Origin: an uncultured Photobacterium sp.
GTDB taxonomy: Bacteria; Pseudomonadota; Gammaproteobacteria; Enterobacterales; Vibrionaceae
NCBI RefSeq assembly: GCF_947039875.1
Contig: NZ_CAMRAN010000019.1
Span: 1 to 64,000 of the forward strand
Direction: 5' to 3'
DNA length: 64,000 nt
The notes under the pieces were generated by a model that was not told the DNA's origin, did no database searches, and saw nothing but the letters and a program-made list of their open reading frames with translations. Shown piece after piece: positions 40,569 to 44,936 of this stretch; position 1 is the first letter of the stretch, and the number at the start of each line of letters is the position of its first letter. Made by a program: the position numbers and the translations under genes.

Positions 40569-42029
40569 TTATTTTTTAACAGGAATATTTTTCAGAATCG
40601 CTAGCATTTGATCCCAGAACATTTGTACGGTATCAATTTTCACTTTCTCATCTGGAGAGTGAGGGAATTTGATTGTTGGGCCAAAAGATAGCATATCCAT
40701 TTCTGGGTATGGTTCTTTAAATAGGCCACACTCAAGACCGGCGTGGATCACCATGATGTTAGGTTTATTTCCATACATCTGCTGATAGGTATCACGGAAT
40801 ACTTGCATGATTTCAGAATCAGCATCAGGTTTCCAACCTGGGTATGCGCCAGATGAAACACACTGTGCGCCAGTAAGTGCCGCTAATGATTGCAACATAC
40901 CTTCAACGTAGCTACGACCAGAATCGATCAATGAACGAATCAGACATAGGATCGTTACTGTGTTTGTTTCAGTCGTGATTACACCCATGTTTAATGATGT
41001 TTCTACTACGCCTTCAATATCATCGCTCATGCGAATAACACCGTTAGGACAAACATTTAGCGTATGCATTAAACGTGTTTGGTCAGCCAGTACCATAACA
41101 TCGCTAGGTTGTGCACATGCTTCAGTAAATAAGGTAATGTCAGTTTCAACATGGCCTAATTCAGCACTAACGATTTGTTGGTAATGAGCAAATAACGTAT
41201 TAAGCTTATCGATATTTGCCGCTGGTAATGTTGCAACAACGCTTGCTTCACGTGGTAGGGCATTACGTAAGCTACCACCAGTGAAATTGTTGATACGTAA
41301 ATCAAGCTCATTAGCATGACCCACTAAGAAACGCGCCATTATTTTATTCGCGTTACCACGACCAGTATGAATATCACAGCCTGAGTGACCGCCTTTTAGG
41401 CCTTTAACAACTAATTTAATTGCTTGATGTTCAGCCGGAACAGCTTCGCGTTGAATATCAACGGTCAACGCAACATCAACACCGCCTGCGCAACCCATGT
41501 AAACTTCGCCTTCTTGCTCAGAGTCAGTATTCAATAGAATATCACCCTCAAGCCAGCCTGCTTCTAAACCAAAAGCACCTGTCATGCCTGTTTCTTCATC
41601 GATGGTTAATAATATTTCTAATGGACCATGTTCGATGTCTTTAGCCGCTAGAATGGCAAGGCAGGTAGCCATACCCATGCCATTGTCTGCACCTAGTGTT
41701 GTGCCTGTCGCCGTTACCCATTCACCATCAATAAATGGCAGAATTGGATCTTGAGTAAAGTCGTGGACAGTGTCTTCATTTTTTTGTGGCACCATATCAA
41801 TGTGTGCTTGAAGTACAACGCCTTTACGGTTTTCCATGCCAACTGTTGCTGGTTTTTTAATAATAACGTTGCCGGTATTATCACGACGAACATCTAATCC
41901 TTCCGCCTGTGCGAACGACACAATGTATTGTGCTAGTTGCTCTTCATATTTAGAAGGGTGAGGGATTGAACAAATCTGATCAAAGAAATGCCAAACAGCT
42001 TTTGGTGATAGTTGAGTAATTTCAGACAC
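40569..42029 (-). CDS. pepD: Aminoacyl-histidine dipeptidase (peptidase D)
   Basis: PepD is a cytosolic M20-family zinc dipeptidase that hydrolyses Xaa-His dipeptides such as carnosine. The 486-aa protein begins SEITQLSPKAVWHFFDQICSIPHPS and has the metal and catalytic motifs LQAHIDMVPQ, LGADNGMGM, IDEETGM and NTDSEQEGE. The start is GTG 42029 with a strong AAGGAAGG upstream. The adjacency pepD-gpt-frsA-crl-proBA, interrupted here by a purine permease, mirrors E. coli. Confidence 0.96.
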   Translation of the reverse strand: MSEITQLSPKAVWHFFDQICSIPHPSKYEEQLAQYIVSFAQAEGLDVRRDNTGNVIIKKPATVGMENRKGVVLQAHIDMVPQKNEDTVHDFTQDPILPFIDGEWVTATGTTLGADNGMGMATCLAILAAKDIEHGPLEILLTIDEETGMTGAFGLEAGWLEGDILLNTDSEQEGEVYMGCAGGVDVALTVDIQREAVPAEHQAIKLVVKGLKGGHSGCDIHTGRGNANKIMARFLVGHANELDLRINNFTGGSLRNALPREASVVATLPAANIDKLNTLFAHYQQIVSAELGHVETDITLFTEACAQPSDVMVLADQTRLMHTLNVCPNGVIRMSDDIEGVVETSLNMGVITTETNTVTILCLIRSLIDSGRSYVEGMLQSLAALTGAQCVSSGAYPGWKPDADSEIMQVFRDTYQQMYGNKPNIMVIHAGLECGLFKEPYPEMDMLSFGPTIKFPHSPDEKVKIDTVQMFWDQMLAILKNIPVKK

Positions 42030-42366: not shown

Positions 42367-42382
42367 TGTGATCTACTTAAAA
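42367..42382 (+). promoter_or_regulatory. CRP-like site upstream of the small-RNA promoter
   Basis: TGTGATCTACTTAAAA has a perfect left half (TGTGATCT) and a degenerate right half relative to TGTGA-N6-TCACA. Its centre is about 48 bp before the predicted start of the 42.42-kb transcript. CRP control would fit a carbon-regulated sRNA. Confidence 0.45.
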
Positions 42383-42387
42383 AAACG

Positions 42388-42416
42388 TTGTAAATTTATT
42401 TCATTTTGACTATAGT
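42388..42416 (+). promoter_or_regulatory. Promoter of the 42.4-kb structured RNA
   Basis: TTGTAA (42388-42393) and TATAGT (42411-42416) are separated by an ideal 17 bp. Transcription should start at about 42423. Confidence 0.65.
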
Positions 42417-42565
42417 TTAGTCATACCTAATTGATAGGCACAATGATTAACACGACATGTTCAGGATGAACCCGAGATATCGCCTCCAAGGAACCGAGAA
42501 TAAGTGAGCCGCGATGGCAAGCCACTAACGATGACGTTGGTGTACTTATGACTAAGGTGATTTAA

Positions 42566-42655
42566 ATGAAAATTTTTTCTTCAATGACACATTTTTGGAA
42601 TAACCGTACTGTATATACAAGTAACTTCCATTACCCAACGCCGTACCGTTACTAA
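42566..42655 (+). CDS. 29-aa peptide encoded in the structured RNA
   Basis: AAGGTGA (42554-42560) lies 5 nt before ATG 42566, an excellent ribosome binding site. The peptide starts MKIFSSMTHFWNNRTVYTSN and ends YPTPYRY. It has ten aromatic residues of 29 and no membrane-helix character. The same length as VcdP of V. cholerae, which modulates citrate synthase, suggests a homologue. An aromatic-rich leader peptide for attenuation is another reading. Confidence 0.65.
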   Translation: MKIFSSMTHFWNNRTVYTSNFHYPTPYRY

Positions 42656-42762
42656 TTAGATTTTATTGTTTTGTTGCTTTCAACGAAACAAATGCAAGTT
42701 TGTTCATCCCCTTAAATTAAGAATATCTCGATAACACTATCCAGTTATCTGCAACATTCTGC

Positions 42763-42792
42763 CGCCACTTCCCTTTGAAGTGGCGTTTTTTT
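42763..42792 (+). terminator. Intrinsic terminator of the structured RNA
   Basis: CGCCACTTC (42763-42771) pairs perfectly with GAAGTGGCG (42777-42785) across a 5-nt loop, followed by seven T residues. This is the Rho-independent end expected for an Hfq-dependent sRNA. Confidence 0.93.
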
Positions 42793-43051: not shown

Positions 43052-43067
43052 GCGCAATCGTTTTCTA
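43052..43067 (+). promoter_or_regulatory. PurR-like operator before the purine permease
   Basis: GCGCAATCGTTTTCTA matches the strong PurR consensus ACGCAAACGTTTTCGT at 12 of 16 positions. It sits 53 bp before the permease start. PurR control of purine permeases is established in E. coli. Confidence 0.6.
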
Positions 43068-43119
43068 TTTCTTGGCGTTGTTTGTTACTTTATTGCGTAT
43101 CTCTAAGGAACCGAGAAGC

Positions 43120-44409
43120 ATGCTAGAAAAGTTATTTAAACTCACTGAAAATGGCACAACTGTGCGCACTGAAATTATGGCAGGTGTTACTACCTTCCTG
43201 ACAATGGCTTATATTATTTTTGTAAACCCCACTATGCTAGCCAGTACAGGAATGGATCAAGGTTCAGTGTTTGTTGCTACTTGTTTAGCGGCAATGATTG
43301 GCTGCTTTGTGATGGGTTTTTATGCTAACTATCCTGTCGCACAAGCACCGGGCATGGGACTTAACGCCTTTTTTACTTATACCGTTGTTTTAGGTATGGG
43401 TCATACATGGCAAGTGGCATTAGCAGCAGTATTTTTATCTGGCTTATGCTTTATTGCATTGAGTGTTATGCGCGTCCGTGAATGGATTATCAACGCGATT
43501 CCTCATTCATTACGTATCGGTATTTCAGCCGGTATTGGTCTGTTTTTAGCGTTCATTGCTTTGCAAACATCAGGCATTGTTGTGGCGAGTCCTGCAACAT
43601 TAGTCACCGCCGGTGATTTAACCAGTTTTCCAGCAATAATGGCTGCACTCGGTTTTTTCCTGACGATTTCTTTAGTACAACGTGGTTTTAAAGCGGCGGT
43701 ATTAATTGCGATTTTAATTGTAACTGCAATCAGCATTATTGTTGGTGAAGTGGATTACAACGGCATTATGTCAATGCCACCAAGCATTGCTCCAACCTTT
43801 ATGCAGCTTGATTTTTCAGGCGCGATGGAAGTGGGGTTAATTTCAATTGTGTTTGCCTTTTTGTTTGTTGATTTGTTTGATACCGCAGGCACATTGGTCG
43901 GTGTGGCAACTAAAGCAAACTTAATTGGTGAAGACGGCAAATTACCGCGTTTAAACCGAGCACTATTAGCCGACAGTACTGCAACCTCGATTGGTGCACT
44001 ATTGGGGACGTCAAATACGACATCTTTTGTTGAGAGTGTGTCGGGGGTCGCAGTTGGAGGCCGCACAGGTCTAACAGCTGTAACAGTTGGCGTGTTATTC
44101 TTATTAGCCTTATTTTTTGCTCCGCTGGCAGGAATGGTTCCTGCCTATGCAACGGCGGGTGCGCTGTTTTATGTTGCTATTTTAATGATGTCAGGTTTGG
44201 TATCGATTGATTGGCGAGATTTAACTGAAGCGGCGCCAGTGGTGGTTGTGTGTTTACTCATGCCTTTGACCTATTCGATTGCGGAAGGTATTGGTCTTGG
44301 TTTTATCACATTTGCGGTCGTAAAAGCATTGAGTGGTAAGGGACGCGAAGTAAACATTAGTGTATGGGTTATTTCAGCGCTATTTTTTGCGAAGATTATT
44401 TTCTTATAA
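43120..44409 (+). CDS. NCS2-type purine (adenine/guanine/hypoxanthine) permease
   Basis: The 429-aa protein belongs to the AzgA-like branch of nucleobase transporters (E. coli AdeP/GhxP). It has the typical start FKLTENGTTVRTEIMAGVTT followed by FLTMAYIIFVNP, then QAPGMGLNAFFTYTVV and the family signature FDTAGTLVGVATKA. GTSNTTSFVESVSGVAVGGRTGL follows in the loop region (broken here to keep motifs short: GTSNTTSF, ESVSGVAVGGRTG). About 12-13 helices are present. ATG 43120 with AAGGA upstream is chosen; the 59-residue extension upstream is low-complexity leader. The PurR-like box upstream and gpt downstream place it in purine salvage. The exact substrate is unresolved. Confidence 0.9.
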   Translation: MLEKLFKLTENGTTVRTEIMAGVTTFLTMAYIIFVNPTMLASTGMDQGSVFVATCLAAMIGCFVMGFYANYPVAQAPGMGLNAFFTYTVVLGMGHTWQVALAAVFLSGLCFIALSVMRVREWIINAIPHSLRIGISAGIGLFLAFIALQTSGIVVASPATLVTAGDLTSFPAIMAALGFFLTISLVQRGFKAAVLIAILIVTAISIIVGEVDYNGIMSMPPSIAPTFMQLDFSGAMEVGLISIVFAFLFVDLFDTAGTLVGVATKANLIGEDGKLPRLNRALLADSTATSIGALLGTSNTTSFVESVSGVAVGGRTGLTAVTVGVLFLLALFFAPLAGMVPAYATAGALFYVAILMMSGLVSIDWRDLTEAAPVVVVCLLMPLTYSIAEGIGLGFITFAVVKALSGKGREVNISVWVISALFFAKIIFL

Positions 44410-44477: not shown

Positions 44478-44936
44478 ATGAGTAATAAATTCGTCATCAC
44501 TTGGGATAACATGCAAATGTACACGCGCCAGCTAGCAGAAAAATTGCTACCAGCAGAGCAGTGGACAGGTATTATTGCAGTTAGCCGTGGCGGTTTAGTG
44601 CCAACTGCTATTTTGGCGCGCGAATTAGGTATTCGTCATGTTGATACCGTATGTATCGCAAGCTACGATCATGATCACCAGCGTGATATGAAAGTGATCA
44701 AGCAAGCTGATGGTGACGGTGAAGGCTTTATCGTGGTTGATGACTTGGTTGATACTGGGGGTACTGCTGAAAAAATTCGTGAAATGTACCCACGTGCTAA
44801 GTTTGTTACGGTATGTGCTAAGCCTGCGGGTCAGCATTTAGTTGATGACTTTGTTGTTAGTATTCCACAAGATACTTGGATTGAACAACCTTGGGATATG
44901 GCGGTTACTTTCGTTGATCCTATTGCGAAAAAATAA
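44478..44936 (+). CDS. gpt: Xanthine-guanine phosphoribosyltransferase
   Basis: Gpt converts guanine, xanthine and hypoxanthine to their nucleotides using PRPP. The 152-aa product starts [20 protein letters not shown] and has the PRPP-binding motif [15 protein letters not shown] and the base-binding [15 protein letters not shown] end. Position after the purine permease couples uptake with salvage. It is full length compared with E. coli Gpt (152 aa). Confidence 0.97.

What the first reader, a model, noticed from the sequence alone, without database searches (positions are those of the whole stretch)
42367..42792. Candidate dual-function sRNA encoding a 29-aa peptide between pepD and a purine permease
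Seen: TTGTAA-17-TATAGT promoter, a CRP-like site just upstream, a structured leader, AAGGTGA five bases before a 29-codon ORF (MKIFSSMTHFWNNRTVYTSN..., ending YPTPYRY), an 11-bp hairpin, an unpaired UCAUCCCCUUAA stretch complementary to Shine-Dalgarno-type sequence, another hairpin, and a strong terminator 108 nt after the stop codon. Established knowledge: V. cholerae VcdRP is a CRP-controlled sRNA that base-pairs with PTS mRNAs and also encodes a 29-aa peptide acting on citrate synthase. Inference: this is its homologue or a related coding sRNA. If it is not VcdRP, it is an undescribed coding RNA.
Basis: partly seen in the sequence, partly recalled or inferred. Interest (0 to 1): 0.85.

Follow-up and report, generated by a model that had tools for sequence, protein, structure and literature searches.

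The report
VcdRP-type dual-function RNA in Photobacterium
This is the Photobacterium copy of VcdRP, a known bacterial RNA that both encodes a tiny protein and silences sugar-uptake genes; the unreported part is a strongly conserved folded leader in front of the tiny gene that looks like a switch for making the protein.

Summary
Window 42367-42792 is an orthologue of vcdRP (Venkat et al. 2021, PMC8672173): same place (pepD / vcdRP / purine permease), a 29-codon ORF under purifying selection, the C4 pairing seed, the terminator. The genome is a Photobacterium close to P. piscicola. The locus is a new member of a known kind.

The unreported part is the leader. A core (42459-42498), without an Rfam match, occurs in 198 of 247 Vibrionaceae genomes searched, in all 11 held genomes of one genus of a second family and in 2 genomes of a third. 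It has two GGA motifs 25-29 nt apart, the first in the loop of a covarying hairpin, and an anti-Shine-Dalgarno stretch able to pair with vcdP's own ribosome site. RNAalifold drew that hairpin and that pairing unprompted on 40 leaders. Leader and peptide behave as one module: duplicated together, kept without the seed in 11 of 114 loci.

Best reading: the leader gates VcdP translation (about 0.7), perhaps through CsrA (about 0.4). This is inferred from sequence. Evidence against: SD pairing is weak in some lineages, the leader alone is not unusually stable, and no protein binding was tested.

The parts
42367..42382 (+). CRP-like site, left half TGTGA good, right half degenerate (TTAAA)
   Evidence: sequence; left half kept in the 14 aligned relatives; full palindrome in L068
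42388..42416 (+). sigma-70-type promoter TTGTAA-17-TATAGT; start of RNA inferred near 42423
   Evidence: not above chance alone; aligned in relatives
42459..42471 (+). leader hairpin HP1, GUUC-AGGAU-GAAC, GGA1 at 42464-42466 in the loop
   Evidence: stem covaries, 98% paired against at most 90% in 2000 arm swaps over 49 leaders; RNAalifold
42473..42482 (+). possible middle hairpin CGA-GAUA-UCG; excludes the anti-SD pairing
   Evidence: weak: 2-4 bp; other letters in L116 (CGUG/CACG), L125-L128; third pair broken in 9 of 30 Vibrio leaders
42479..42485 (+). anti-Shine-Dalgarno AUCGCCU, complementary to 42555-42561
   Evidence: RNAalifold on 40 leaders; own pairs better than 5000 swaps, two matched changes L029 and L127; weak in L125, L126, L128, L132-L134
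42484..42498 (+). CUC-CAAGGAACC-GAG with GGA2 at 42490-42492
   Evidence: GGA2 25-29 nt after GGA1 in 67 of 67 distinct cores; lost in L129
42500..42549 (+). helix P2, arms 42500-42506 and 42543-42549, bringing the SD near the anti-SD
   Evidence: 7 bp or more in 66 of 114 leaders, 4 or fewer in 29; 5 two-sided changes
42554..42561 (+). Shine-Dalgarno AAGGTGAT
   Evidence: sequence, conserved
42566..42655 (+). vcdP ORF, 29 codons and stop
42666..42691 (+). 11-bp hairpin after the ORF
   Evidence: sequence and fold
42703..42715 (+). VcdR pairing seed UUCAUCCCCUUAA
   Evidence: CCCC kept in relatives; predicted pairing with PTS starts
42763..42792 (+). Rho-independent terminator
40569..42029 (-). 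pepD, upstream neighbour
   Evidence: NCBIfam TIGR01893 over cut-off
43120..44409 (+). purine-type permease, downstream neighbour; its start region repeats AAGGAACCGAG at 43105-43115
   Evidence: PF00860

Best explanation
The locus is the Photobacterium orthologue of vcdRP. One RNA of about 370 nt starts near 42423 and ends at 42792. Its 3' part (VcdR) pairs through UUCAUCCCC with translation starts of PTS sugar-uptake genes and should silence them with Hfq; its ORF makes VcdP, which in V. cholerae stimulates citrate synthase. Added here: the leader is a conserved RNA element that gates VcdP translation. In one fold AUCGCCU pairs with the Shine-Dalgarno AGGUGAU, helped by helix P2, and closes the ribosome site. 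In the other, HP1 (GGA1), the middle hairpin and CUC-CAAGGAACC-GAG (GGA2) form and the site is free. A CsrA dimer on GGA1 and GGA2 would favour the open fold and raise VcdP. Supported by sequence here: orthology, coding, seed, HP1, P2 in most lineages, the conserved GGA pair, the potential SD pairing. Taken over from the V. cholerae paper: target silencing, GltA stimulation, CRP repression. Inferred by me: that the leader gates VcdP (about 0.7), that CsrA is the ligand (about 0.4), that the effect is activation (about 0.25). The confidence given is for orthology to vcdRP.
For: Conservation in 43 of 52 genomes of the genus and coding signature. Geometry equal to the published one in L068 to within 1 nt; synteny with named V. 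metoecus. Seed pairing predicted with two TIGR01998 PTS genes and ptsH, with 0, 1 and 1 of 35 background starts as strong. Leader: core in 198 of 247 family genomes and beyond the family; HP1 covariation; RNAalifold consensus of 40 leaders = HP1 plus anti-SD:SD; matched changes in L029 and L127. Module behaviour: tandem leader+ORF before one seed in L124, seedless copies in 11 of 114 loci, ORF and GGA2 both broken in L129. The genome has csrA, and CsrA is known to open closed SDs in ymdA and, as proposed, moaA (PMC7652899, passages).
Against: No transcript, binding or translation data. The leader alone is no more stable than shuffles. Anti-SD:SD pairing is weak in L125, L126, L128 and L132-L134, where the window's strand would pair better with their SDs than their own does, as also in L111, L116, L122 and L169. 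In the 40-leader set this helix has no two-sided change, and slid versions of the structure also show 2 to 5 two-sided pairs against 6. P2 has 4 bp or fewer in 29 of 114 leaders. Seed pairing with L177 is no better than shuffled seeds (86 of 300) and four other PTS starts are ordinary. The right CRP half-site is poor. In the paper a vcdP-gfp fusion gave high GFP, so the site is not tightly shut in that construct.
Confidence: 0.96

Rival explanations
1. The leader's GGA pair acts as a CsrA sponge or as a protein anchor that protects the RNA from RNase E; it does not gate VcdP translation.
For: Two GGA motifs conserved at a fixed distance; CsrA protects flhDC mRNA through two 5' sites (PMC7652899, passages).
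Against: Only two sites, whereas the V. cholerae Csr RNAs have 23-28 GGA motifs (PMC6550530, passages). The leader stays with the ORF in seedless loci, and the SD region is part of the conserved consensus fold.
Confidence: 0.2
2. The leader responds to something other than CsrA (a metabolite, temperature, another protein or RNA) and gates VcdP.
For: Same structural evidence. The permease start shares AAGGAACCGAG with the leader, which would fit a purine-linked signal or a shared factor.
Against: No known riboswitch or other Rfam family matches. The most constant letters are GGA loops, the known CsrA preference (PMC7652899).
Confidence: 0.25
3. The leader has no regulatory role: it is a plain 5' UTR kept for RNA stability or start-site reasons, and the locus is simply VcdRP as published.
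For: The paper explains VcdR without it: 3' fragments of 256, 156 and 87 nt, the first lacking the 5' 50 nt, still silence targets.
Against: The 18-nt core CGCCTCC..CCGAG is kept at 96% column identity against 58% for the ORF (loci were chosen by the core and ORF columns were not gap-aligned, so this overstates the gap). HP1 covariation.
Confidence: 0.15
4. The ORF is a chance frame in a non-coding RNA.
For: Only 29 codons; no Pfam match.
Against: pN/pS 0.08, 0.25 and 0.39 against 1.45 and 1.38 in the +1 frame; published VcdP is made.
Confidence: 0.01

Closest known systems
VcdRP (Vcr082) of Vibrio cholerae, PMC8672173
   Same: Place, RNA layout, 29-aa ORF, C4 seed, terminator, promoter with CRP-like site, and the leader core, which Vibrio loci carry too.
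   Different: RNA about 370 nt against 306; leader about 143 nt before the ATG against 103; seed UUCAUCCCC with an extra U; weaker right CRP half. The leader is not analysed in the paper: 0 occurrences of leader, hairpin and secondary structure and of CsrA.
VvdRP of Vibrio vulnificus, PMC9737408 (passages only)
   Same: Another reported homologue of the same RNA.
   Different: Only its expression was measured; 0 occurrences of CsrA.
SgrS/SgrT of enteric bacteria (as discussed in PMC8672173)
   Same: Dual-function RNA, ORF upstream of the pairing part, acts on sugar uptake.
   Different: Other sequence, regulator and peptide target.
CsrA-activated leaders ymdA and moaA of E. coli (PMC7652899, passages)
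   Same: Two GGA-type sites in a leader with an SD-closing fold.
   Different: CsrA binding is reported there and only inferred here; here the closing strand lies about 70 nt upstream of the SD and the RNA is also an sRNA.

Membership tests
VcdRP | Gene between pepD and the purine permease | tested here: met
   same order in V. metoecus L110. That vc2279 and vc2278 are these two genes is recalled.
VcdRP | 29-aa ORF related to VcdP | tested here: met
   13 of 29 identical to the V. metoecus peptide, coding signature. The V. cholerae letters themselves were not seen.
VcdRP | C4 seed downstream of the ORF | tested here: met
   CCCC 42708-42711
VcdRP | Rho-independent terminator | tested here: met
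VcdRP | Seed pairs with PTS mRNA starts | tested here: inconclusive
   strong for L174 and ptsH; L177 not above shuffled seeds; L171, L172, L173, L175 not. Which gene is ptsG or treB was not settled.
VcdRP | CRP site upstream of -35, CRP represses | tested here: inconclusive
   left half-site only; repression not testable
VcdRP | Hfq binding and RNase E processing | not testable with these tools
   needs experiment
VcdRP | VcdP stimulates hexameric-type GltA | not testable with these tools
   one citrate synthase, cit_synth_I family, is present
CsrA target leader | GGA in the loop of a short hairpin | tested here: met
   HP1
CsrA target leader | Second GGA site at bridging distance | tested here: met
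   25-29 nt in 67 of 67 distinct cores; that this is a bridging distance is recalled
CsrA target leader | SELEX consensus RUACARGGAUGU | tested here: inconclusive
   HP1 has CAGGAUG, without the ACAR part; by eye
CsrA target leader | csrA in the genome | tested here: met
CsrA target leader | CsrA binding and csrA-dependent expression | not testable with these tools
   needs experiment

The most novel reading that the evidence does not exclude
The vcdRP leader is an undescribed RNA switch, older than or independent of the sRNA part. CsrA grips two GGA loops, releases an anti-Shine-Dalgarno helix and turns on a peptide that speeds citrate synthase. VcdRP would then join CRP, CsrA and Hfq control on one RNA, and the base-pairing seed would be a later or losable tail on a leader-peptide gene.
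Probability: 0.35. Interest if true: 0.7.

Novelty: new member of a known kind. Interest (0 to 1): 0.5.

Why it matters
The locus shows that VcdRP is not only a Vibrio feature. More usefully, it exposes a leader that the published work did not analyse and that is conserved in three families, with natural variants that serve as controls (matched SD changes, seedless copies, a tandem copy, a decayed copy). If CsrA acts there, the carbon storage regulator and the CRP system meet on one small RNA that sets sugar uptake and entry into the TCA cycle, and the origin of a dual-function RNA becomes testable: a leader-peptide gene with and without an sRNA tail.

Tried and rejected
Rfam: no match at gathering score on the window or on L068, L111, L116, L124; three weak matches on the locus, best isrD 20.2 bits against a cut-off of 37, at the terminator. 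Leader outside the order: a class-wide scan gave 7 weak hits besides the own genome in 369 genomes (E 5.8e-4 to 7.8e-3); not inspected, taken as chance. Folding of alignment A1 gave no covariation; MAFFT shifts HP1 in A1, A3 and A4 and P2 in A6, so models R1 and R2 carry sequence only and HP1 was counted by script. I first took the changed leader and SD of L132-L136 for a matched block change; energies do not bear this out. P2 does not stand out in single sequences (27 of 114 at p<0.05, mononucleotide shuffles; start and end were limited by the script).

Literature: no CsrA-VcdRP link in searches. They cover only the held open-licence papers. Of the listed papers I opened PMC8672173, PMC7858070, PMC6550530, PMC7652899 and PMC9737408, by sections or passages; supplements (such as CsrA co-precipitation tables) were not available.

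Selections: A5 holds 40 of the 46 leaders listed as Vibrio/Aliivibrio type; L069, L070, L078, L080, L166 and L168 were left out, the first four because they look different, which favours the structure. A4 uses 51 of 53 distinct cores. L103 was dropped before the count of 114 (cut at a contig edge); L140 was not counted because the script anchored on the permease. The 49 leaders were picked by hand for diversity. In one search the script chose other arms than HP1 for L087 and L132-L134. In one search I chose the start codons of L174 (GTG) and L177 by eye.

Full report
WHAT IS THERE. The promoter alone is no better than shuffles, so the case rests on comparison. A DNA search with 42380-42795 matches 43 of 52 genomes held for the genus. 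Of the nine genomes without a DNA match, seven were searched again with a leader model: five (G007, G013, G016, G041, G044) have a diverged copy, G004 and G048 gave none; G015 and G035 were not searched again.

IT IS vcdRP. PMC8672173 (sections read: only part 1 of sections 10 and 15; [quoted passage not shown] Its alignment is a figure, which is not held; its authors note several highly conserved sequence elements, so the leader's conservation may be visible there. Unnamed locus L068 has that geometry, with the last T at 305. Named V. metoecus L110 has pepD, leader and ORF, permease and gpt in the window's order. The peptide is coding: pN/pS 0.25 over 29 distinct Photobacterium ORFs, 0.08 in the near clade (7 ORFs), 0.39 over 30 Vibrio-type ORFs, against 1.45 and 1.38 in the +1 frame for the first and third set. 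A homologue was also reported in V. vulnificus (PMC9737408, passages).

SEED. In the window's own genome the seed gives -15.8 and -12.0 kcal/mol with the starts of two TIGR01998 PTS IIBC genes (L174, L177) and -12.2 with an HPr gene (L179). Thirty-five ORF starts of the window average -7.0, with 0, 1 and 1 of 35 as low. Against shuffled seeds 7, 86 and 29 of 300 are as low, so L177 is not significant. PTS starts L171, L172, L173 and L175 are ordinary and L176 is middling at -10.3, 3 of 35 as low. The genome has one citrate synthase, of the cit_synth_I family, closest in the PDB to 4e6y_A.

THE LEADER. The strongest conservation is upstream of the ORF. A sequence-only model of the core hits 198 of 247 Vibrionaceae genomes at E<=0.01, in 11 of 13 genera, and 43 of 394 genomes of the order at E<=0.001: 30 of the own family, 11 of family f2, 2 of family f11. 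Genus g14 of f2 has it in 11 of 11. These two families are unnamed here; Moritella or Shewanella for f2 would be a guess. No Rfam family covers it.

ANATOMY. HP1 holds GGA1 in its loop, and its stem covaries: 98% of cells paired over 49 leaders, at most 90% in 2000 swaps. GGA2 lies 25-29 nt further on in 67 of 67 distinct cores. AUCGCCU can pair with the Shine-Dalgarno AGGUGAU; RNAalifold, given only 40 aligned leaders, predicts HP1 and this pairing and nothing else, 12 pairs, 1 with a two-sided change. Between them a helix P2 with changing letters (AUAAGUG/UACUUAU, AUUAAGU/ACUUAAU, AAAUCAA/UUGAUUU, AUCAAUU/AAUUGAU, AACAAGU/ACUUGUU) lies between the GAG and the SD; it reaches 7 bp or more in 66 of 114 leaders, 5-6 in 19 and 4 or fewer in 29. 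On the 40-leader alignment 6 pairs have two-sided changes, 5 of them in P2, none in the anti-SD helix (0 of 500 shuffles reach 6); slid structures have 2 to 5, but pair 21-43% of cells instead of 86-90%. Anti-SD changes are matched in L029 (AUUGCCU with AGGUAAU: -7.0, against -4.3 for the window's strand with that SD) and L127 (-7.7 against -6.7). Own pairs average -8.16 against -7.50 for swapped pairs, reached in 0 of 5000 swaps. Against this, in L125, L126, L128, L132-L134, L111, L116, L122 and L169 the window's strand would pair better with their SD than their own does. Relatedness inflates all these swaps.

MODULES. Among 114 distinct loci the script finds four or more C between ORF and terminator in 98; L124 has them by eye, and L008, L075, L116 and L117 have three C. 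Eleven have none: L031, L088, L126, L127, L138 and six of f2 (L088 and f2 judged by eye, since the script found no terminator there). L031 and L138 are second copies in genomes that also have the normal gene and have no pepD or permease beside them within the stretch held. L088 and L126 sit beside pepD and the permease, so there the seed was lost in place or never gained. L124 carries two leader+ORF units in a row before one seed. L129 has a stop at codon 10 and GGA2 changed to GAA, with C run and terminator kept. This suggests that the leader serves the peptide.

MECHANISM. CsrA prefers GGA in the loop of short hairpins and activates ymdA, and as proposed moaA, by freeing an SD (PMC7652899, passages); V. 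cholerae CsrA acts positively on varA (PMC6550530, passages). The genome has csrA. Forcing HP2 in silico raises SD openness in four of five leaders (window 0.31 to 0.38, L068 0.24 to 0.39, L071 0.09 to 0.38, L116 0.30 to 0.38) and lowers it in L111 (0.26 to 0.24), at a cost of 1.8 to 4.0 kcal/mol; the anti-SD:SD register has a mean pair probability of 0.26 in the window and 0.01 in L116. I propose a leader gate with CsrA as opener as the likeliest but unproven reading. A CsrA effect in the other sense, a sponge, or another ligand stay open.

NEIGHBOUR. The permease start of the window repeats the leader word AAGGAACCGAG. These are the only two exact copies in the 3.96-Mb genome, 617 bp apart on one strand; about two copies are expected by chance in such a genome by my arithmetic, but not so close. 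The word stands at the permease start in P. piscicola, P. iliopiscarium, P. carnosum and P. phosphoreum and in G055, with one change in P. kishitanii, P. aquimaris and P. malacitanum, and not in the Vibrio-type loci where that start was found (L069, L078, L079, L129).

VERDICT. Known gene, new host genus, and an unreported, testable leader.

Noticed in passing
window 43105-43115: The permease start region carries AAGGAACCGAG, the same word as the vcdRP leader's GGA2; the only two copies in the genome, 617 bp apart. Possible shared control.
   Followed up: partly
L031 (G022) and L138 (G043): Second, seedless vcdRP-like genes in Photobacterium at another place, with the same promoter type and leader and an ORF closer to the Vibrio type; may be transferred.
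   Followed up: partly
L124 (G169), about 1499-2100: Tandem leader+vcdP units before one seed and terminator.
   Followed up: partly
L065 and L169: Two Vibrio-type loci with strongly diverged peptides behind an unchanged leader.
   Followed up: no
L111-L115, L118 (family f2): Leader in front of a 27-codon ORF MKNSVP..KFTYPRH.GY whose end resembles VcdP, without seed.
   Followed up: partly
window 43053-43066: GCGCAATCGTTTTC upstream of the permease resembles a PurR box (consensus recalled), which would give the permease its own control.
   Followed up: no
window 44478-44936: Xanthine phosphoribosyltransferase that also matches the Tet(34) model below its cut-off (269 against 345 bits); looks like the ordinary gpt gene.
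   Followed up: no
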